A DNA stretch of 64,000 nt from Kribbella sp. CA-293567. GTDB lineage: Bacteria > Actinomycetota > Actinomycetes > Propionibacteriales > Kribbellaceae. A program made the position numbers and the translations under genes. Location of the stretch: contig NZ_CP114065.1 in assembly GCF_027627575.1 (NCBI RefSeq), positions 6,448,001-6,512,000 on the forward strand, in the 5' to 3' direction. The notes under the pieces were generated by a model. That model saw only the letters and a list, made by a program, of their open reading frames with translations. It did not search any database and was not told where the DNA came from. Of this stretch, positions 4,683-44,137 are shown one piece after another; the stretch's first letter is position 1, and each line of letters opens with the position of its first letter.

Positions 4683-6027
4683 GGATCCGCTCCCAGTCGG
4701 TGACGGCGGCGTCGTAGGCGGCCAGTTCCACCCGGGCCGCGTTGACGTAGTGCTCCACGACCTCGTCGCCGAACGCCTCGCGGGCGATCTTCGAGCCGGC
4801 GAACAACGCCGACGCCTCCCGCAGCGTGGTCGGGACGTGCGGCTTGCCGGAGGTGTAGGCGTTGCCCTCCAGCATCGGCTCCAGTGCGAGTTCGTTCTCG
4901 ATCCCGTGCAGGCCGGCCGCGATCAGCGCGGCGACCGCGAGGTACGGGTTGACGTCGCCGCCGGGCAGCCGGTTCTCCACCCGGAGCGACTCGCCGTGAC
5001 CGACCACGCGGAGCGAGCAGGTGCGGTTGTCCAGGCCCCAGGCGACGGCGGTCGGCGCGAAGCTGCCCGGTACGAACCGCTTGTAGGAGTTGATGTTCGG
5101 CGCGAGCAGGTAGGTGAACTCCTCCAGGCAGGCCAGCTGCCCGGCGATGAACTGCTCCATCAGCTCGGAGAAGCCGTGCTCGCGGTCGCCGGCCAGCACC
5201 GCCTCGCCGTCGTCGGACCGGAAGCTCAGATGGATGTGGCAGGAGTTGCCCTCCCGCTCGTCGAACTTCGCCATGAAGGTGAGGCTCTTGCCGTGCTTGA
5301 CCGCGATCTCCTTGGCCCCGGTCTTGTAGATCGAGTGGTTGTCGCAGGTCACCAGCGCTTCGTCGAACCGGAAGGCGATCTCCTGCTGACCGAGGTTGCA
5401 CTCGCCCTTGGCGGACTCGACGTACAGGCCGGCGCCCTCCATCGAGTTGCGGATGTCGCGCAGCAGCGGCTCGATCCGGGCGGTGCCGAGGAGTGAGTAG
5501 TCGACGTTGTACTGGTTGGCCGGGTCGAGGTCGCGGTAGCTCTTGGTCCAGGCCTGCTCGAAAGTGTCGTTGAAGACGATGAACTCGAGCTCGGTCCCGA
5601 CGTAGGCCTTGAGGCCCCGTTGGGCCAGCCGGTCGAGCTGAGCCCGGAGGATCTGCCGCGGCGACGCCGGCATCGGCGTCTGGTCGAGCCACTGGACGTC
5701 GCAGATCACCAGCGCGGTGCCTTCCAGCCAAGGCAGCAGCCGCAGGGTGTCGAGATCGGGGGCCATCAGCAGATCGCCGTACCCGCGCTCCCACGAGGAC
5801 ATCTCGTAGCCGTCGACGGTGTTCATGTCGACGTCGACGGCCAGCAGGTAGTTGCAGCCCTCGGTGCCGTGCCGGAGCACTTCCTCGACGAAGTACCGGC
5901 CGCCGCATCGCTTGCCCTGCAACCGGCCCTGCATGTCGGTGATCGCCACCAGCACGGTGTCGATCCGCCCGGCGCCGATCTGGTCCCGGAGCTCCTGCAC
6001 GGTCAGCTTGCCGGTACTCGAGGCCAC
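4663..6027 (-). CDS. Glutamine synthetase-like gamma-glutamyl-amine ligase (GlnA4/PuuA type)
   Basis: A 454-residue glutamine synthetase-fold protein with the metal/ATP signatures GTELEF (144-149), GECNLGQQEI (208-217) and NSCHIHLSF (261-269). It lacks the C-terminal adenylylation-site tyrosine context of housekeeping GlnA, which fits a catabolic gamma-glutamyl-polyamine or gamma-glutamyl-ethanolamide ligase. Streptomyces coelicolor GlnA4 is a described gamma-glutamylethanolamide synthetase, and the neighbouring ethanolamine-type permease makes that the better guess here; a polyamine substrate (PuuA, GlnA3) remains possible. The GTG start has AGGAG about 7 bp upstream. It is the first gene of the leftward operon and diverges from the permease gene across 94 bp. 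Confidence 0.88.
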   Translation of the reverse strand: MASSTGKLTVQELRDQIGAGRIDTVLVAITDMQGRLQGKRCGGRYFVEEVLRHGTEGCNYLLAVDVDMNTVDGYEMSSWERGYGDLLMAPDLDTLRLLPWLEGTALVICDVQWLDQTPMPASPRQILRAQLDRLAQRGLKAYVGTELEFIVFNDTFEQAWTKSYRDLDPANQYNVDYSLLGTARIEPLLRDIRNSMEGAGLYVESAKGECNLGQQEIAFRFDEALVTCDNHSIYKTGAKEIAVKHGKSLTFMAKFDEREGNSCHIHLSFRSDDGEAVLAGDREHGFSELMEQFIAGQLACLEEFTYLLAPNINSYKRFVPGSFAPTAVAWGLDNRTCSLRVVGHGESLRVENRLPGGDVNPYLAVAALIAAGLHGIENELALEPMLEGNAYTSGKPHVPTTLREASALFAGSKIAREAFGDEVVEHYVNAARVELAAYDAAVTDWERIRGFERL

Positions 6028-6046
6028 GGTCGCTCCTGGGTTTTAT

Positions 6047-6064
6047 TGGTATGCGGTCAGTCCA
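6047..6064. promoter_or_regulatory. Candidate operator in the ligase/permease divergent promoter
   Basis: The 94-bp gap between the two divergent genes holds an imperfect inverted repeat TGGnnTG-N4-CAnnCCA, with outer arms TGG and CCA, just where the two promoters must sit. A TTGACG follows at 6065-6070 as a possible -35 for the permease, but its -10 is weak. FadR-type GntR proteins bind TGGTnnnACCA-like sites, so this could be the target of the regulator encoded at 1048-1773. The site is short and inexact. Confidence 0.3.
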
Positions 6065-6121
6065 TTGACGCAACCCGGGGTCGCGATGTCAAGATGACCG
6101 AACACCCCCTGGGAGGCCCCG

Positions 6122-7561
6122 ATGAGCCAGAAGAAAGCCCGCGTCGACTACCAGCAGGTCGGCAAGGAGTATCTGGAGCAGCGGCAACTGAAACGTGGCG
6201 CGGCCGGCTGGGTGCTGCTGGCCGGGCTCGGCGTCGCCTACGTCATCTCCGGTGACTTCGCCGGCTGGAACTTCGGACTGGCCGAGGGCGGCTGGGGCGG
6301 GTTGCTGATCGCGACCGTGCTGATGGCCACGATGTACACCTGCATGGTGTTCGGGTTGGCCGAGCTGGCCTCCGCGATCCCGGTCGCCGGCGCGGGGTAC
6401 GGGTTCGCCCGGCGCGCGCTCGGGCCGCTCGGCGGGTTCGCCACCGGTACGGCGATCCTGATCGAGTACGCGATCGCGCCGGCCGCCATCGCCACCTTCA
6501 TCGGCGGCTACATCGAGGCGCTCGGGCTGTTCGGGCTGACGTCGAGCTGGCCGGTGTACCTGGGTTGCTACGTGGTCTTCGTCGGCATCCACCTGTACGG
6601 CGTGGGCGAGGCGCTGCGGCTGACGCTGGGCATCACCGCGGTCGCCGTCGTCGCGCTGGTGGTGTTCGTGGTCGCGATGGTGCCGAAGTTCGACGCGGAC
6701 AAGCTCTTCGACATCGTGCCGAACAACGCCGCCGGGGCCAGCGAGTTCATCCCGTTCGGGTACGCCGGGGTGCTGGCCGCGCTGGTCTACGGCATCTGGT
6801 TCTTCCTCGCGGTGGAAGGCGTTCCGCTGGCCGCCGAGGAGGCGCGCGACCCGCGCAAGGACATGCCCCGCGGCATCATCACCGCGATGCTGATCCTGCT
6901 CGTCTTCGCCGCTCTGATGCTCGTCTTCACCGCCGGTGGCGCGGGCTCGGCGGTCATCGCCGACTCGGACAACCCACTGCCGTTGGCGTTGCGTACCGCG
7001 TTCGGCGGCGAGACGTGGGTCGCCGACTTCGTCAACTACGTGGGCCTGGCCGGGCTGGTCGCCAGCTTCTTCTCCATCGTCTACGCCTACTCCCGGCAGC
7101 TCTTCGCGCTGTCCCGCGCGGGCTACCTCCCCCGCTTCCTCTCGGTCACCGGCAAGCGCAAGACGCCGTACCTCGCCCTGACCGTCCCCGGCCTGATCGG
7201 CTTCCTGCTGGCCGCGATCACCCAGGACGGCGCGCTGCTGATCAACATCGCCGTCTTCGGCGCCACCGTCTCGTACGTCCTGATGATGCTGGCCCACATC
7301 GTCCTCCGGGTCCGCGAACCAGGTCTCGAACGCCCCTACCGCACCCCCGGCGGCGTCGTCACCACCGGCGTCGCCCTGGCCCTGGCGATCACCGCCGTCA
7401 TCGCCACCTTCTTCGTCGACAAGTTCGCCGCCGCCATCACCGCCGGCATCTTCGTCGTCGCCCTCGCCTACTTCTGGTTCTACAGCCGCCACCACCTGGT
7501 CGCCTCGGCCCCCGAAGAAGAGTTCGCCGCCATCCAGCAGGCCGAGTCCGAGCTGTCCTGA
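6122..7561 (+). CDS. eat: APC-family ethanolamine-type permease
   Basis: A 479-residue integral membrane protein with about 12 hydrophobic segments, of the amino acid-polyamine-organocation superfamily. The N-terminal stretch GYVxSG-like region (AYVISGDFAGWNFGLAEGGWGG, given here in two parts around residue 40-60) and the following APVAGAGYGFARRALGP-like segment are characteristic of the ethanolamine permease group rather than the basic amino acid antiporters. It is transcribed away from the ligase operon from a shared 94-bp region. Unlike in Pseudomonas, no eutBC ammonia lyase genes accompany it here, so the imported amine would be processed by the gamma-glutamyl route. Substrate assignment rests on family resemblance. 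Confidence 0.82.
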   Translation: MSQKKARVDYQQVGKEYLEQRQLKRGAAGWVLLAGLGVAYVISGDFAGWNFGLAEGGWGGLLIATVLMATMYTCMVFGLAELASAIPVAGAGYGFARRALGPLGGFATGTAILIEYAIAPAAIATFIGGYIEALGLFGLTSSWPVYLGCYVVFVGIHLYGVGEALRLTLGITAVAVVALVVFVVAMVPKFDADKLFDIVPNNAAGASEFIPFGYAGVLAALVYGIWFFLAVEGVPLAAEEARDPRKDMPRGIITAMLILLVFAALMLVFTAGGAGSAVIADSDNPLPLALRTAFGGETWVADFVNYVGLAGLVASFFSIVYAYSRQLFALSRAGYLPRFLSVTGKRKTPYLALTVPGLIGFLLAAITQDGALLINIAVFGATVSYVLMMLAHIVLRVREPGLERPYRTPGGVVTTGVALALAITAVIATFFVDKFAAAITAGIFVVALAYFWFYSRHHLVASAPEEEFAAIQQAESELS

Positions 7562-8814: not shown

Positions 8815-9987
8815 ATGCGTGTCCTCCTGACGGCCTGCGCCACCGCGGTAGCCTCCACGGCTCTCGCGGTGACCGGTCCTCTTGCTGCGACCGCCGTCGG
8901 CCAGAGTGCTCGTACTCCGGTCGGCGGCGCTCAGCTGACCACGGAGCCGACGGTTGTCGCCGCTGGGGCGACGCCGCCGGCCGTGCAGGCGTCGGCGTAC
9001 GTGCTGGCCGACGTCGACACCGGCGACATCCTGGCGGCCAAGGCACCGCACGCCAAGCTGCGGCCGGCCAGCACGCTCAAGACCCTGACCGCGCTGGTGC
9101 TGCTGCCGCGGCTGAACAAGACCGACCAGGTGGTCGGCACCGACAAGGACGCCGGCATCATCGGCAGCAAGGTCGGCGTGTACCCCGGTCTGCGGTACTC
9201 GGTGGATCTGCTGTTCGAGGGGATGTTCCTGGCCTCGGGCAACGATGCGGTGAACGCGCTGGCCTGCCACGACGCGGGCGGCGTACCGGGGACCATCCAG
9301 CGGATGAACCAGCTGGCCGCGCAACTAGGGGCCCTGGACACCCATGTGACCGACCCGACCGGGCTGGACGCCGACGGGCAGTACTCGAGTGCGTACGACC
9401 TGGCCCTGTTCGCTCAGGCCGGGTTGAAGCGCCCGGACTTCGCGAAGTACGCGGCGACGAAGTACACGAACTTCCCGCTGGCGAAGAACGCCGGCAGCTA
9501 CCAGGTCGCCAACCAGAACAAGCTGCTCTTCAACTACGACGGCGCGCTCGGGGTGAAGACCGGCTACACGACGCTGGCCCGCAACACCTTCGTCGGCGCG
9601 GCCAGGCGGAACGGGCACACGCTCGTCGTCACCCTGCTGAACTCACCGCACGGCATCACTCAGGACGCCACCAAGCTGCTCGACTGGGGCTTCAAGTCGT
9701 ACGCCGCCCTGTCGCCGGTCGGCACCCTGGTCAAGCCCGCTGTCGCGGCACCGCCGAAGACCGCTCAAGGCGAGGGCCCGAACACCTCCAAGAAGTCCTC
9801 GGCCCTGCCACCTCGCCGCAACCGCGCTGCCCTCGCCGCGGCTGCCGTAGCCCAGTCGGTCGCCTACCGCGTCCCGAGCTGGGCCTACGCCCTCCCGCCC
9901 CTGCTACTCCTTCCCCTGTTCCTTCGTCGTCCGAAGGCGCTCAGGGCTCGAGCCAAGGCAGCAGCCAAAGCTCGACTGCAGAAGTAG
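8815..9987 (+). CDS. D-alanyl-D-alanine carboxypeptidase (penicillin-binding protein, S11)
   Basis: A 390-residue S11-family serine peptidase that trims the terminal D-Ala of peptidoglycan stem peptides. It has a signal peptide, then the catalytic tetrad STLK (Ser86, Lys89), SGN (141-143) and KTG (248-250). After a Ser/Pro-rich linker a C-terminal hydrophobic segment (VPSWAYALPPLLLLPLFL) followed by basic residues anchors the protein in the membrane. I chose the ATG at 8815 because the signal peptide begins there; the frame upstream runs through the hairpin and is not protein-like. The gene is convergent with the BrkB gene, with only 8 bp between the stops. Confidence 0.93.
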   Translation: MRVLLTACATAVASTALAVTGPLAATAVGQSARTPVGGAQLTTEPTVVAAGATPPAVQASAYVLADVDTGDILAAKAPHAKLRPASTLKTLTALVLLPRLNKTDQVVGTDKDAGIIGSKVGVYPGLRYSVDLLFEGMFLASGNDAVNALACHDAGGVPGTIQRMNQLAAQLGALDTHVTDPTGLDADGQYSSAYDLALFAQAGLKRPDFAKYAATKYTNFPLAKNAGSYQVANQNKLLFNYDGALGVKTGYTTLARNTFVGAARRNGHTLVVTLLNSPHGITQDATKLLDWGFKSYAALSPVGTLVKPAVAAPPKTAQGEGPNTSKKSSALPPRRNRAALAAAAVAQSVAYRVPSWAYALPPLLLLPLFLRRPKALRARAKAAAKARLQK

Positions 9988-39233: not shown

Positions 39234-40226
39234 GTGAGCAAATCACCCGTCAAGGTGGCCGTTACCGGTGCTGCCGGTCAGATCGGATACAGCCTGCTGT
39301 TCCGGATCGCGAGCGGCGCGCTGCTCGGGCCGGACACGCCGGTCGAGCTGCGGCTGCTGGAGATCACCCCGGCGCTGAAGGCGCTCGAGGGGGTCGTGAT
39401 GGAGCTCGACGACAGCGCCTTCCCGACGCTCGCCTCGGTCGAGATCGGCGACGACCCGAACGTGATCTTCGACGGCGCCAACGTCGCGCTGCTGGTGGGC
39501 GCGCGGCCGCGGACCAAGGGGATGGAGCGCGGCGACCTGCTCGAGGCCAACGGCGCGATCTTCACCGTCCAGGGCAAGGCGCTGAACGAGCACGCCGCCG
39601 ACGACATCCGGATCACCGTGACCGGCAACCCGGCCAACACCAACGCGCTGATCGCCCGCAGCAACGCGCCGGACATCCCGGCCGAGCGCTTCTCCGCGCT
39701 GACCCGGCTGGACCACAACCGGGCGCTGGCGCAGCTGGCCCGGAAGACCGGCACGCACGTCACCGACCTGAAGAAGCTGACCATCTGGGGCAACCACAGC
39801 GCCACCCAGTACCCGGACATCTTCCACGCGGAGGTGGCCGGGAAGAACGCCGCCGAGGTCGTCAACGACCAGACCTGGCTGGAGAACGACTTCATCCCGA
39901 CCGTGCAGAAGCGCGGCGCGGCGATCATCGAGGCCCGCGGCGCCTCCTCGGCCGCCTCGGCCGCGGCGGCCACCGTCGACCACGCGCGCGACTGGCTGCG
40001 CGGCTCGGCCGAGGGCGACTGGCTCTCGATGGCGGTCGTCTCCGACGGCTCGTACGACGTCCCGGAGGGCCTGATCTCGTCCTTCCCGGTGACCACCAAG
40101 GACGGCGACTACGAGATCGTCCAGGGCCTCGAGATCAACGAGTTCTCCCGCGCCCGGATCGACGCCAGCACCAAGGAGCTCGGCGAGGAGCGCGACGCCG
40201 TCCAGGCCCTCGGCCTGCTCGGCTGA
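39234..40226 (+). CDS. mdh: Malate dehydrogenase
   Basis: A 330-residue NAD-dependent malate dehydrogenase of the cytosolic-like (group 2) type: nucleotide loop [12 protein letters not shown] (11-22), substrate arginines in [12 protein letters not shown] (90-101), proton-relay His188 in [11 protein letters not shown]. The GTG at 39234 has AAGGAG 8 bp upstream; an open frame further upstream is not coding. A TAGCGT at 39187-39192 may be its -10. A strong terminator follows the stop. A 50-bp copy of its 3' end is found 4 kb downstream at 44088-44137. Confidence 0.97.
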
Positions 40227-40245
40227 TCTTCGCAGGCAAGACCTG

Positions 40246-40291
40246 CAAAACCCCCGGGATGCTTCGAACTGCTCCCGGGGGTTTTGTTTTT
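40246..40291 (+). terminator. Intrinsic terminator of mdh
   Basis: A 14-bp perfect stem (40246-40259 with 40273-40286, CAAAACCCCCGGGA and its complement) with a 13-base loop and a following T5 run: a textbook Rho-independent terminator starting 20 bp after the mdh stop. Confidence 0.92.
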
Positions 40292-40566
40292 GCCGGTCGG
40301 CGGACGGTAGGCACGGACGGTCACGATCCGAACTCATGACAGCACACAGGGTGATAGATCCGGATATCCTCGGACACTGCCGGCAGCGATGGCGGCGCCC
40401 GGCTATTACGCACTAATTGTTGGCCGATGAATTCCGAAACTGCAACAAGCAGCAATCGGCACCGCTTTGTTTGACGGCCAACACGGTACCGCCGTAACGT
40501 CCAGTTTCGCGTCGATGGTGGGGCCCCGGACGCCTATCCTGTTCGACAGACCGAAAGGTGAAACCT
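40292..40566 (+). promoter_or_regulatory. Non-coding leader of the peptide/ABC/M50 cassette with promoter
   Basis: This 275-bp stretch has no convincing gene and is clearly less GC-rich than its surroundings. TTGACG (40471-40476), an 18-bp spacer and TAACGT (40495-40500) form a plausible promoter about 65 bp before the peptide gene. GTTGGCC and GGCCAAC near 40423 and 40476 could pair and would cover the -35. A TATCCT near 40535 is an alternative -10. Confidence 0.5.
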
Positions 40567-40830
40567 GTGACAAACGCCGCCCTTTACCTGACCTCCGGTG
40601 CGATGAGTTTGCAATCGCGACTGGGCCGATCGCTTGAGTCCGCTCGCACGAACCAGACCCCGATGCGCTGGGTCTGGATCATCCTGATCGGCGTCCTCGT
40701 GATCGCCGCAGCCGCCGGCTTCATCTACTGCCGGGCTCGCGGGTTCGACGGCTTCACCGGCCACATCGAGGCCGTCAAGGGACCCGGCGGCTTCAAGATC
40801 GGTGTCAAGATCGGTTGCTACAAGGGCTAG
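40567..40830 (+). CDS. Small single-helix membrane peptide, candidate precursor peptide
   Basis: An 87-residue product from the GTG at 40567, chosen because AAAGGTG lies just before it; an earlier GTG at 40558 would add three residues but sits inside that site. Residues 1-34 are polar and basic (cytoplasmic), 35-54 are a hydrophobic helix starting at RWVWIILIGVLVI, and 55-87 form a Gly/Lys-rich tail with Cys55 and Cys84, ending GGFKIGVKIGCYKG. I do not recognise the family. Leading an operon with an ABC exporter and an M50 intramembrane protease, it could be a substrate that is cut within the helix and released. A regulatory or structural membrane subunit is the alternative. Confidence 0.7.
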   Translation: MTNAALYLTSGAMSLQSRLGRSLESARTNQTPMRWVWIILIGVLVIAAAAGFIYCRARGFDGFTGHIEAVKGPGGFKIGVKIGCYKG

Positions 40831-40918
40831 TCCGGACCCTGCCGGTCAATTCGACCCATTAAATCTGGCCAAGAAAATCATATTCTTTCGGAATTGATTT
40901 CCTGACGAGAGGAACTGC

Positions 40919-41731
40919 ATGAAAACGCCCGAGCCGTTGGCGGTCCGTGGATTGACGAAGAAGTTCGGCGGGCAGCGCGCGGTAGACGATGTCTCGTTCA
41001 CCGTGCCGACCGGATCGATCGTCGGCCTGCTGGGCCCCAACGGCTCGGGTAAGTCCACCACCCTGCACTGCATCACCGGCTTCCACCGGGTGACGGCTGG
41101 TGAGGTGCTGATCAACGGCCTTCCGCACGACACCCCGGCCGCCAAGAACGAGTTCGGCTTCTTCCCCGACGATCTTCCGGTGCCGGAGTCGCTGACCGCG
41201 GACGAGACGCTGGCCCTGCACCGCCGGCTTCGGCCGCTGTTCGATCTCGAGTTCGCCGAGGCGCTGACCGAGACAGTCGGATTGCTGGCACACCGCAAGA
41301 AGTTCGTCGGTGACTACTCGCACGGCATGCGCCGCAAGCTGCAACTCGTACTGGCGCTGGCGCACCATCCGCGTTTGCTGATCCTGGACGAACCGCTGCG
41401 CGGCCTCGACCCGGAGGCCGGGGCCTTGATGAGTTCGGTGATCGCGCAGTTCGCGGGATCCGGCGGCGCCGTCCTGATTGCCACCCACGACCTGTACGCG
41501 GCCGAGCGGACCTGCGACGAGGTCTGCATCCTGTCCGACGGCAAGCTCGCCGCGAGCGGCCGACCGGCCGACATCGTGACCCGGACCGGAACCGCCGACC
41601 TCGCGGACGCCTTCGTAGCGGTGACCGGCCTGACCACCAGCGTCGCGGCCGCCGAGGCTGCGGTCGCCGAACTTCTCCGCACCCACCGAGCGGGCCAAGA
41701 GGCCCGGCCCGCCACTCACCTCCAGGGATAA
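40919..41731 (+). CDS. ABC transporter ATP-binding protein of the peptide/M50 cassette
   Basis: A 270-residue ATPase: Walker A GPNGSGKST (39-47), signature YSHGMRRKLQL (133-143, a non-canonical LSGG), Walker B LLILDEPLRGLD (153-164) and H-loop ATHD (188-191). It looks like the ABC-2 exporter type (bacitracin or YxlF/CcmA-like). The ATG at 40919 follows GAGAGGAAC. It starts 88 bp after the small peptide, across an AT-rich gap, and should pair with the polytopic protein encoded at 42005-43483. Confidence 0.92.
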   Translation: MKTPEPLAVRGLTKKFGGQRAVDDVSFTVPTGSIVGLLGPNGSGKSTTLHCITGFHRVTAGEVLINGLPHDTPAAKNEFGFFPDDLPVPESLTADETLALHRRLRPLFDLEFAEALTETVGLLAHRKKFVGDYSHGMRRKLQLVLALAHHPRLLILDEPLRGLDPEAGALMSSVIAQFAGSGGAVLIATHDLYAAERTCDEVCILSDGKLAASGRPADIVTRTGTADLADAFVAVTGLTTSVAAAEAAVAELLRTHRAGQEARPATHLQG

Positions 41732-41735
41732 CGTC

Positions 41736-42008
41736 ATGAAAAGCCTCGGTAGAGCCGTTCCCACCGCCGCCGTCCTGATCGTCGTCGTGGCGATCGCCCT
41801 ACTCGGCTGGGGACTCGTCTCCGGCAACGACCTGCACGTTCCGCTGTTCCTGGACGTCGACTCGGAACAGAAGGCCGGCGGCGAACCGCAGACCACGCTG
41901 TCCTTCTCGCCGATCGGTCCACTGCTCGGCCTCGTCATCCTCAGTCTGCTGCTGTGGCCGGTGTTTCGGGCCCGGTCCCGGGCAACCGCCGACGGTGACG
42001 ACAGTTGA
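41736..42008 (+). CDS. Small two-helix membrane protein
   Basis: A 90-residue protein with two hydrophobic helices (about 8-28 and 58-77) flanking an outside loop of about 30 residues (GNDLHVPLFLDVDSEQKAGG). It is of unknown family. The gene starts 4 bp after the ATPase stop and its TGA overlaps the TTG start of the permease gene, so it is a built-in part of the operon, possibly an accessory subunit of the exporter. Confidence 0.78.
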   Translation: MKSLGRAVPTAAVLIVVVAIALLGWGLVSGNDLHVPLFLDVDSEQKAGGEPQTTLSFSPIGPLLGLVILSLLLWPVFRARSRATADGDDS

Positions 42009-43483
42009 GCGTCCCGGTGGCGCACCCGGCCGCGGCCTTTCCCTCGACGGCGCGGGTGCTGTTGACCGTCCAGCTACTCACCCTGCGGCTCTGGTTCAAC
42101 GACCTCGGCCGGTCCCTGCACTCGCGCGCTCAGGCCTGGGTGCTGGTCGGCGCCTTCGGTGCGGCCATCGCCGGGTTCACCGTCTGGAGTTCCCTGCAGA
42201 GCGCGCGTCAGCTTGGCGTCAGCGACCTGACGGGCGCCGAGACGACCTACAGTGCCATCACTTTCACGGTTCCGGCTCTGACCACCCTGATGGTCGGTCT
42301 CTACGTGCCTTCGCGCACGCTGGTGACCGAGATCCTCTCCGTGATGCCGGTCACCGACGGTGCCGTCCGCGCGGCGGTCAGAGCCATGACGGGCACCATC
42401 GGCGGGTTCGCTGGGGCGGTCCTGTTGGCACCCCTGTGGGCACCGGTCCTGATCGCCCGCGGCCTGGACGGGGCACCTGTGGTCGCCAGCCTGTTCTGGC
42501 TCGGCCTGGGCGGCGTCCTGATCGCTCTCGCCCTCGAGGCCGCGCTCTCGCTGGGGTATCGCACCGTCTTTCGGATGGGGACGATCTTCTCCCGTGGACT
42601 GGCGGCTTTGTCGGCCGCGGTACTGCTCGCCTTGGCCTTCGCGGATGCGATGCCCATGAACGGCAACATCCCGGGTGGGCTCCATCAGACCTTCACCGCC
42701 GGTCTGGTCGACTTCGCCGAGAGCGGCACCGCATTCGCCCCGGCGACCTCCGCGTTACTGCTTCCAGTGCTTGCCGTCGCCGTCCTGTGGGCCTGCGGCC
42801 GGTCGCCGGAACTGGACTCCGGCAACTCCCTGCACCTGCCGCAGTGGCTGTCGGCCGGCGCCGCCAGCACTCCGGTTCGGCTGGAACTGCTTCAGATCCT
42901 TCGGTATCCGCCGAACGCGATGTTGCTCGTCTTCGTCAACGGCATAGCGGTTCTCGCCGCTGTCTTCATGCTGCGATCGGCGCAGGACGAGTTCGGACTC
43001 GGGGTCATCGTGCTGACGATGGTCAGCGCCTGGGCGGTCGGCGCCTACGGCCCGACCCGGCGGCACCACTGGATCTATCGCACCACCGAGCATCCCTACG
43101 CCTGGATCCGGCCGAAGCTGGTCGCAGTTGGTGCGGTCTGGGTGCTGTTGATCAGCGTGCACGGCGGTTGGCTGGTTCTGCTGACGAACTGGACGCTGCG
43201 CGACCTGGGCCTACTGCTCCCCACCTTGCTGATCGAGTTGATCGTGGCGGCGGCCGTCGGCGTCCTGCTGCCGGTCGGCCGGGACACCTCGATTTCCGGC
43301 GCGATGTCCGATGCCCTCGCCCTGGCCCTCCTGCTCGCCGTCACCTCGGGCCTGCAGAGCCTGCTGTCCCAGGTCGGCTCGGTGACCTCGATCCTGGCTG
43401 TGCAGGCGGTGGCACTGATCACGGCGTTCGGCTTCTTGCTGTTCGTCGCGCGGAGATCCACCCGACTCGACCTCGCTCCATGA
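42005..43483 (+). CDS. Polytopic ABC-2-like permease of the peptide/M50 cassette
   Basis: A 492-residue membrane protein with about 12 hydrophobic segments in two halves separated by a soluble stretch near residues 265-300 (GRSPELDSGNSLHLPQWL). I see no specific family signature, but length and linkage to the ATPase fit the membrane half of an ABC exporter. Translation starts at TTG inside TTGA, overlapping the preceding stop; the stop overlaps the ATG of the M50 gene. Such chained overlaps imply fixed stoichiometry. Confidence 0.8.
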   Translation: MSVPVAHPAAAFPSTARVLLTVQLLTLRLWFNDLGRSLHSRAQAWVLVGAFGAAIAGFTVWSSLQSARQLGVSDLTGAETTYSAITFTVPALTTLMVGLYVPSRTLVTEILSVMPVTDGAVRAAVRAMTGTIGGFAGAVLLAPLWAPVLIARGLDGAPVVASLFWLGLGGVLIALALEAALSLGYRTVFRMGTIFSRGLAALSAAVLLALAFADAMPMNGNIPGGLHQTFTAGLVDFAESGTAFAPATSALLLPVLAVAVLWACGRSPELDSGNSLHLPQWLSAGAASTPVRLELLQILRYPPNAMLLVFVNGIAVLAAVFMLRSAQDEFGLGVIVLTMVSAWAVGAYGPTRRHHWIYRTTEHPYAWIRPKLVAVGAVWVLLISVHGGWLVLLTNWTLRDLGLLLPTLLIELIVAAAVGVLLPVGRDTSISGAMSDALALALLLAVTSGLQSLLSQVGSVTSILAVQAVALITAFGFLLFVARRSTRLDLAP

Positions 43484-44040
43484 CCAACGCCTCAGGCCTG
43501 GGTGGCAGACGTCCGGCCGCCCTGTCCCCGGGCCTGGTCGCACCGGTGGTCGCCATTCTCCGGGCTGCGGTCCGGCCGGTGACCGCGGTGGCGACGTTCA
43601 CCCTGGGAGTCGCGGGGATCGCCGGCCTGCTGGCCGGCGACCTGCGTACCCCTTTGGTTGCCGCCTGCCACCTTGTTCTGGTCGTCGGGATCTCTCTCGT
43701 CGCGCACGAGTCCGCCCACATCCTGCTCCTGCGGTCACCCCGCGACCGGCGTGTCGCGGGAGTCGTGCACGGATCGTGGACTCAGGTCTGGGTCGAGTGC
43801 CCGCAACTGTCTCGGCGCTGGGCAATCGCCGTCGCGACCGCCGGGCCGGTCATGGGCGCGCTCAGCTGCTACGCCTTGACCTTCACCGGACTGAGAACGC
43901 CGATCTGCTGGGCAGTGGCAGTCGTCCACTTGGCGAACCTGCTGCCGTTCGTCGGCGACGGGAAGGTTGTGCTCGTCAACTGTCTCAGCGCTCTGATCCG
44001 CCAGCCGCGCCGGTCGGCCACTGACGCCGAAGGCGCGTAG
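43480..44040 (+). CDS. Intramembrane M50-type (site-2-like) zinc metalloprotease
   Basis: A 186-residue membrane protein with about four helices. HESAH (76-80) in SLVAHESAHILLL supplies the zinc-binding HExxH inside a helix, and NLLPFVGDGK (153-162) matches the N-P-x-x-DG second half of the M50/S2P active site. It is shorter than RseP and has no PDZ domain. It starts in an ATGA overlap with the permease and ends the cassette at a perfect palindrome. The likely task is cleaving a membrane-spanning substrate, with the 87-residue operon leader product the natural candidate. Confidence 0.82.
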   Translation: MTNASGLGGRRPAALSPGLVAPVVAILRAAVRPVTAVATFTLGVAGIAGLLAGDLRTPLVAACHLVLVVGISLVAHESAHILLLRSPRDRRVAGVVHGSWTQVWVECPQLSRRWAIAVATAGPVMGALSCYALTFTGLRTPICWAVAVVHLANLLPFVGDGKVVLVNCLSALIRQPRRSATDAEGA

Positions 44041-44062
44041 TACGGACGCGTCCGTACTACGC
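44035..44062. terminator. Perfect 28-bp palindrome at the cassette end
   Basis: A spacerless palindrome (arms GCGTAGTACGGACG and complement) that contains the TAG stop of the M50 gene. It may be the operon terminator; a protein-binding or recombination site is also possible because the mdh relic begins 26 bp further on. Confidence 0.55.
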
Positions 44063-44087: not shown

Positions 44088-44137
44088 CGACGGCTCGTAC
44101 GACGTCCCGGAGGGCCTGATCTCGTCCTGCTCGGCTG
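44088..44137 (+). pseudogene. Relic of the mdh 3' end
   Basis: Positions 44088-44128 are identical over 41 bp to mdh 40043-40083 and are joined directly to a copy of 40217-40225, the last codons before the mdh stop. The join falls at a CCT shared by 40081-40083 and 40214-40216, so 133 bp were lost at a 3-bp microhomology. The fragment is in the same direction as mdh, lacks its stop codon and is not translated. It ends 7 bp before the stop of the convergent glycosyltransferase gene. Confidence 0.93.

What the first reader, a model, noticed from the sequence alone, without database searches (positions are those of the whole stretch)
40471..44062. Compact peptide/ABC exporter/M50 protease cassette without a modification enzyme
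Seen: five genes, the last three with chained stop/start overlaps, in the order single-helix 87-residue peptide, ABC ATPase, 2-TM protein, 492-residue permease, and a 186-residue membrane protease with HESAH and NLLPFVGDG. Known: M50 proteases next to ABC exporters and a small precursor occur in the Bacillus yydFGHIJ epipeptide locus, which also has a radical SAM enzyme. Inference: this cassette may make and export a peptide cut out of the membrane by the M50 protease, with Cys55/Cys84 of the Gly/Lys-rich tail forming a disulfide. No modification gene is present, so it would be a new, modification-free variant. A stress-sensing or immunity module is the alternative.
Basis: partly seen in the sequence, partly recalled or inferred. 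Interest (0 to 1): 0.85.

Follow-up and report, generated by a model that had tools for sequence, protein, structure and literature searches.

The report
Divergent TMcin-type bacteriocin gene cassette
Five adjacent genes look like a distant version of the recently described TMcin system, which makes a small membrane-spanning peptide, trims it inside the membrane and exports it to punch holes in rival bacteria.

Summary
The five genes are there as described. Gene for gene they match the published TMcin bacteriocin cluster (PMC12328743, PMC13252029): a one-helix precursor with two conserved cysteines (tmcA), ABC ATPase (tmcB), permease (tmcC), two-helix escort (tmcE) and S2P-type membrane protease (tmcP). 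An HMM of 43 actinobacterial TmcA ORFs recognises published TMcin-G1905 at 70 bits; 38 of the 43 loci examined carry all five genes. The window belongs to a separate, rarely seen lineage (window, L060, L136), all in order A-B-E-C-P. Its TmcP (43.5 bits) and TmcB (best of 151 matches in its genome) are clearly related to the known family. Its TmcA, TmcC and TmcE are at or below the limit of detection by sequence, and its Cys-Cys loop is longer (29 against 24-26 residues). A 47-bp copy of the 3' part of mdh follows the cassette and sister genomes lack the cassette, so it was probably acquired. Verdict: divergent variant of a known kind. No activity was tested.

The parts
40567..40830 (+). tmcA-like precursor, 87 aa (GTG). 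Leader about residues 1-33, membrane helix about 35-55, C-terminal beta-hairpin with Cys55 and Cys84. The cleavage site is inferred from alignment with published TMcin-G1905.
   Evidence: W35, C55, C84 invariant in 16 rows; predicted helix 33-57, strands 62-72 and 75-85; mean pLDDT 69, pTM 0.41; weak by sequence alone
40919..41731 (+). tmcB-like ABC ATPase, 270 aa
   Evidence: Pfam ABC_tran E 2.3e-26; best of 151 matches to a TmcB profile in its genome, 152.8 bits, next 121.6
41736..42008 (+). tmcE-like two-helix membrane protein, 90 aa (proposed escort)
   Evidence: two hydrophobic segments; same protein in L060 and L136; end-to-end but weak profile alignment to the other TmcE
42005..43483 (+). 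tmcC-like permease, 492 aa (TTG start)
   Evidence: 37% identical to L060; 429-column profile alignment to known-type TmcC, above 60 of 60 shuffles, though a direct HMM score is only -0.8 bits
43480..44040 (+). tmcP-like S2P-type intramembrane protease, 186 aa
   Evidence: 43.5 bits to the known-type TmcP HMM, 0 of 1000 shuffles as high; H76, E77, H80, H150, P156, D160, G161 invariant in 17 rows; top Foldseek PDB match is site-2 protease 3b4r
44088..44134 (+). 47-bp copy of the 3' part of mdh (source 40043-40089), probable scar of the event that brought the cassette
   Evidence: 96% identical over 47 nt; first 41 nt identical

Best explanation
A TMcin-type bacteriocin cassette of a divergent lineage. 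TmcA is inserted in the producer's membrane with its N-terminus inside. Cys55 and Cys84 pair outside, closing a two-stranded hairpin against the helix. TmcP, helped by the two-helix TmcE, cuts off the leader just before the Trp at the start of the helix. The TmcB/TmcC ABC transporter pulls the helix-plus-hairpin peptide (about 54 residues) out of the membrane, and the secreted peptides insert in Gram-positive neighbours and assemble into a beta-barrel pore ringed by helices. Shown here: the genes, their co-conservation, the invariant active-site and Cys residues. Shown by others, for TMcin-G1905 only: processing, disulfide, export, escort and pores. Inferred for this locus: every functional step.
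For: Published TMcin-G1905 scores 70.2 bits against an HMM of 43 actinobacterial TmcA ORFs, so those loci are TMcin clusters. All five proteins of an S. epidermidis plasmid cluster (order B-C-E-P-A) match the same HMMs (59 to 229 bits). The window has the same five gene kinds. TmcP 43.5 bits and TmcB 157.6 bits against HMMs built without it, 0 of 1000 shuffles each. TmcB is the best of 151 ATPase matches in its genome. Profile against profile: TmcP probability 97.9, TmcC 54.1 over 429 columns, neither reached by 60 shuffles. In a TmcB tree the 17 cassette ATPases lie on one side of a branch against 11 other ATPases of the genome, support 99/98. W35, C55, C84 invariant in 16 TmcA. Predicted TmcA: helix then hairpin, as published for TMcin.
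Against: Window TmcA alone is near noise: 8.8 bits, 26 of 2000 block shuffles as high, and an 8-row TmcA profile did not bring it up in its own genome at E <= 10. TmcE 1.3 bits (171 of 1000 shuffles as high) and TmcC -0.8 bits (4 of 1000) by direct HMM; profile comparison of TmcA reached by 1 of 60 shuffles. Window TmcP misses the DUF3267 cut-off. A first ATPase tree with poorer outgroups put this lineage with outgroup ATPases, not with the known TmcB; the second tree is unrooted and would also allow that. The TmcA model used known-type rows in its alignment, so it is not independent.
Confidence: 0.82

Rival explanations
1. Same biosynthetic logic, different job: the cassette makes and exports a membrane-derived peptide that acts as a signal or on the producer's own envelope, not as a pore-forming bacteriocin.
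For: TmcA of this lineage has a longer Cys-Cys loop (29 against 24-26 residues) and a helix shorter by about 3-4 residues in alignment, so the pore geometry may not carry over. No activity is known for it.
Against: Same gene set and same conserved TmcA residues as a class with shown pore activity; the predicted hairpin is kept.
Confidence: 0.1
2. Convergence: an exporter, an S2P protease and a single-helix peptide were put together independently and only resemble TMcin.
For: TmcA, TmcE and TmcC are at the limit of detection; the first ATPase tree separates the lineage from known TmcB.
Against: TmcP homology is clear, TmcB is the best in the genome, TmcC aligns over 429 columns, and the two-helix protein is present as well.
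Confidence: 0.08
3. A stress-sensing or immunity module in which the protease cuts a single-helix regulator.
For: S2P proteases often cut single-helix regulators (general knowledge).
Against: No sigma factor or DNA-binding gene among the five genes; the peptide is present in 13 of 13 protease-plus-ABC loci and its conserved part is the outside tail with paired Cys, unlike a cytoplasmic regulator.
Confidence: 0.03

Closest known systems
TMcin class, TMcin-G1905 of Staphylococcus aureus plasmid pCT545 (PMC12328743, PMC13252029)
   Same: Same five gene kinds (A, B, C, E, P); one-helix precursor with Trp at the helix start and two conserved Cys; FTG motif after the first Cys; HExxH...DG protease; two-helix partner; no radical SAM enzyme.
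   Different: Gene order A-B-E-C-P instead of B-C-E-P-A; no DsbA gene among the five (absent from non-staphylococcal clusters too, per PMC13252029); Tyr before the first Cys instead of Trp; longer Cys-Cys loop; TmcA, TmcC and TmcE barely detectable by sequence.
Actinobacterial TMcin clusters found here (e.g. L071 Cutibacterium avidum, L078 Streptomyces pyxinae, L103 Pseudarthrobacter siccitolerans)
   Same: Same five genes on one strand.
   Different: Order A-B-C-E-P in the 37 single-copy complete loci; Cys span 24-26.
   Same: Membrane metalloprotease, ABC exporter and small precursor side by side (passage on EpeP seen in PMC10885120; gene content recalled).
   Different: Has a radical SAM epimerase (recalled) and, as far as recalled, a soluble precursor; no sequence comparison was made here.

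Membership tests
TMcin | Precursor with a single membrane helix | tested here: met
   One hydrophobic segment 35-53; predicted helix 33-57
TMcin | Two universally conserved Cys closing a C-terminal two-stranded loop at the helix end | tested here: met
   C55 and C84 invariant in 16 rows; predicted strands 62-72 and 75-85. The disulfide itself was not testable.
TMcin | Helix flanked by two highly conserved Trp | tested here: inconclusive
   W35 kept; the second is Tyr54. Both TmcA copies of L092, otherwise of the known type, also have Tyr there (2 of 43 ORFs). The paper calls them conserved, not universal.
TMcin | TmcA sequence homology | tested here: inconclusive
   8.8 bits, 26 of 2000 block shuffles as high; not retrieved in a whole-genome search
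TMcin | S2P/DUF3267-type protease TmcP with HExxH and distal Asp | tested here: met
   43.5 bits, 0 of 1000 shuffles; residues invariant in 17 rows; 3b4r top PDB match, E 0.03, probability 1.00. The Pfam DUF3267 cut-off is not reached.
TMcin | ABC transporter TmcB and TmcC, one permease chain of about 12 helices | tested here: met
   TmcB clear; TmcC present with 11 hydrophobic peaks, homology supported only profile to profile
TMcin | Two-helix escort TmcE in the operon | tested here: met
   Two-helix protein in the operon in all three members of this lineage; sequence homology to known TmcE not shown (171 of 1000 shuffles as high)
TMcin | Secreted, leader-free product with pore-forming activity | not testable with these tools
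   needs the bench
Epipeptide (yyd/epe) | Radical SAM epimerase gene in the cluster | tested here: not met
   None of the five gene products has a radical SAM match in Pfam at E <= 1

The most novel reading that the evidence does not exclude
A second, anciently separated branch of membrane-born pore-forming peptides: same five-part machinery as TMcin, but with a shorter helix and a longer hairpin, hence a pore of different geometry, and with an order (A-B-E-C-P) in which escort and permease have changed places.
Probability: 0.5. Interest if true: 0.6.

Novelty: new variant of a known kind. Interest (0 to 1): 0.45.

Why it matters
TMcins are a very new class with only a staphylococcal example worked out in the two papers seen. 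A lineage this distant shows which parts cannot change (one helix, Trp at its start, two Cys, FTG/FSG, the protease active site) and offers a natural variant of pore geometry and of the escort-protease pair. The 43 loci also place TMcin clusters in skin Cutibacterium species, Streptomyces, Arthrobacter, Glycomyces and others, and one locus (L017) fuses the protease to a PqqD domain, the fold that binds leaders in many RiPP pathways, which makes leader recognition testable.

Tried and rejected
Tried without result. Single-sequence search for protease, permease and peptide in 147 relatives: apart from the window's own genome only two weak protease hits, one real (G099) and one false (G069). Protease against viral contigs: 14 pattern matches, none confirmed. 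Window peptide and window permease against plasmids: no match. Known-type TmcA against phages: no match. RNA fold of the tmcA-tmcB gap: no better than shuffles (z -0.16). Promoter and terminator scan of 40227-40930: none found.

Rejected or discounted. L018 and L019: protease-like hits without a cassette. The eight protease hits L059 and L061-L067 have no cassette; the one checked, L059, is an ordinary Peptidase_M50. L058 is cut by its contig end. Of 83 genomes with a hit I read 4 known ones and the next 18 by E-value; the weaker rest was not examined. Weak hits G981, G956, G454 (= L018) and G021 were not taken as members; G981, G956 and G021 were not followed up. In one search the L060 protease and permease were given out of frame, so their scores there are void; frames were mended. 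In one search L060 TmcP was cut at residue 135. Avidumicin (Cutibacterium avidum, J. Antibiot. 2023) could be a product of such a cassette since C. avidum ATCC 25577 carries one (L071), but the paper is not held; only its reference line was seen.

Papers. PMC13252029: abstract, introduction, results, discussion, methods and figure legends read, reference list not read through. PMC12328743: outline, passages, sections 9 and 10; its Fig. 3 tree and source data not seen, so I cannot say whether this lineage is already in it. PMC10885120: passages. PMC11943950 and PMC12960600: one reference line each. The others: search listing only. Searches for earlier description.
Full report
Observation. The ATPase has a strong Pfam match; the peptide, the 2-TM protein and the permease have none over the cut-off, and the protease only sub-threshold DUF3267 and M50 matches.

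Relatives. Two-row and five-row protease profiles then found more: in 394 genomes of the class 6 had a match at E <= 0.001, in 391 of the order 83. I read 4 known genomes and the next 18 regions by E-value. Nine of those 18 hold the cassette (L050-L057, L060; L055 damaged, L054 cut at its contig start), eight are proteases without a cassette, one is cut by its contig end. Counting L009, L015, L016 and L017, 13 of 13 loci with protease and ABC genes together also carry a small one-helix ORF with the Cys pattern. In L017 that ORF scores only 6.0 bits to the family.

A scan of 84,980 species genomes with an alignment of eight peptides gave 43 loci. Five genes are present in 38 of 43 by HMM (37 in order A-B-C-E-P, one with tmcA doubled); two lack a detected E, one a detected P, one shows A alone and one nothing (the last two are at contig ends). 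Among the 38, L070 has its peptide cut by a stop and L069 is cut by its contig start. This scan was made from the peptide side, so it cannot show loci without the peptide. Of the 43 TmcA ORFs (42 loci), 42 have two Cys in the tail, 24-26 residues apart, 39 have FTG, 41 have Trp before the first Cys.

Identification. A paper search led to the TMcin preprint, and from it to the TMcin paper. The published clusters consist of the same five genes. The mature TMcin-G1905 printed in PMC12328743 scores 70.2 bits, E 5e-24 against the HMM of the 43 ORFs, and the five proteins of S. epidermidis pHOB2 score 68.5 (A), 229 (B), 227 (C), 78 (E) and 59 (P) bits. So the loci are TMcin clusters.

How near is the window? 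Much less near: 8.8 (A), 158 (B), -0.8 (C), 1.3 (E) and 43.5 (P) bits against the same HMMs. Controls: for P and B 0 of 1000 block-shuffled copies score as high, for C 4, for E 171; for A 26 of 2000. An eight-row TmcA profile does not find window TmcA in its own genome at E <= 10. Two relatives of its own lineage, L060 (G618) and L136 (G1061, same genus), have the same order A-B-E-C-P and TmcA 50% identical to the window's (42 of 80 for L136). With window plus L060 as a two-row profile against the known type, TmcP aligns with probability 97.9, TmcC with 54.1 over 429 columns, TmcE end to end at 6.7 and TmcA at 21.2; shuffles reach the real score in 0, 0, 0 and 1 of 60. The window ATPase is the best of 151 matches to a TmcB profile in its genome (152.8 bits, next 121.6). 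ATPase trees disagree in part: with poor outgroups the lineage groups with outgroup ATPases; with 11 ATPases of the own genome all 17 cassette ATPases lie on one side of a branch (99/98), though the tree is unrooted and the known type is also set apart by its own branch (100/98). I conclude common descent is likely for P and B, supported for C, and inferred from place and pattern for A and E.

Anatomy. In 16 aligned TmcA, Trp35, Cys55 and Cys84 are invariant; FTG is nearly so (L136 has FSG). In 17 aligned TmcP, H76, E77, H80, P123, H150, P156, D160 and G161 are invariant. The TmcP model (pLDDT 84, pTM 0.74) has site-2 protease 3b4r as its first PDB match by Foldseek (E 0.03, probability 1.00; no match at E <= 0.001) and S2P structures RseP, SpoIVFB and 3b4r among the first rows of the second look (Z 9.7, 8.2, 7.9; an unrelated designed helical protein also reaches 8.2). 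The TmcA model (pLDDT 69, pTM 0.41) is a helix and a two-stranded hairpin; its alignment held known-type rows. The Cys-Cys span is 29 in all three members of this lineage.

Mechanism. For TMcin-G1905 others showed by mutation that TmcP removes the leader, that TmcE is needed for it, that TmcBC exports, and that the disulfide is needed for killing (PMC13252029); pores of large conductance and uptake of 40-kDa polymers were shown in PMC12328743. I infer the same sequence of events here. By alignment the cut would fall just before Trp35. No DsbA gene is among the five genes; PMC13252029 says non-staphylococcal clusters lack it too.

Origin. The cassette was not found in the sampled relatives of the genus: searches of 147 relatives with permease and peptide found only the window's genome. 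All 31 genomes of the genus searched have mdh. In eight of them read downstream of mdh none shows cassette DNA by blastn; in L127 and L130 mdh is followed within about 90 and 150 bp by the flank that lies beyond the cassette here, and in L125 by the glycosyltransferase-like ORF. After the cassette lies a 47-bp copy of the 3' part of mdh (96%, 41 nt perfect). This fits acquisition by an event that copied part of mdh. L060 also has a 47-nt imperfect direct repeat (77%) on both sides of its cassette.

Host. Its order also holds the Cutibacterium, Tessaracoccus and Aeromicrobium genomes found here (matching contig lengths), and its genus has genomes of 7.4-9.7 Mb, which suggests Kribbella; this is inference.

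Novelty. The class is known since 2025. In the passages seen, PMC12328743 reports homologs in Bacillota and Actinomycetota and three gene arrangements, which I could not see. Whether the A-B-E-C-P lineage is among them is open. Papers naming TMcin in the library: two of relevance among seven listed.

Noticed in passing
L017:6688-7581 (+): TmcP-like protease fused to an N-terminal PqqD domain (PF05402, E 7.9e-9), in the order A-P-B-C-E with a TmcA-like ORF of four Cys in the tail. PqqD domains bind leaders in many RiPP pathways (general knowledge), so the protease may hold the TmcA leader itself.
   Followed up: partly
window 44088-44134 and L060 5942-5988 / 9311-9357: Direct repeats of 47 nt at the ends of the cassette in two members of the lineage: in the window a copy of part of mdh, in L060 an imperfect repeat.
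   Followed up: partly
L071, L074, L075, L076: TMcin-type cassettes in Cutibacterium avidum ATCC 25577, C. namnetense, C. porci (protease not detected as intact) and a Cutibacterium MAG.
   Followed up: no
L092:5359-5619 and 5854-6201: Two tmcA copies in tandem before tmcB in Paractinoplanes maris, both with Tyr instead of Trp before the first Cys.
   Followed up: no
L055 / L070, L090: Damaged cassettes: L070 (Tessaracoccus bendigoensis) has its peptide ORF cut by a stop and tmcE in pieces; L090 (Kocuria) has ATPase and permease in pieces.
   Followed up: no
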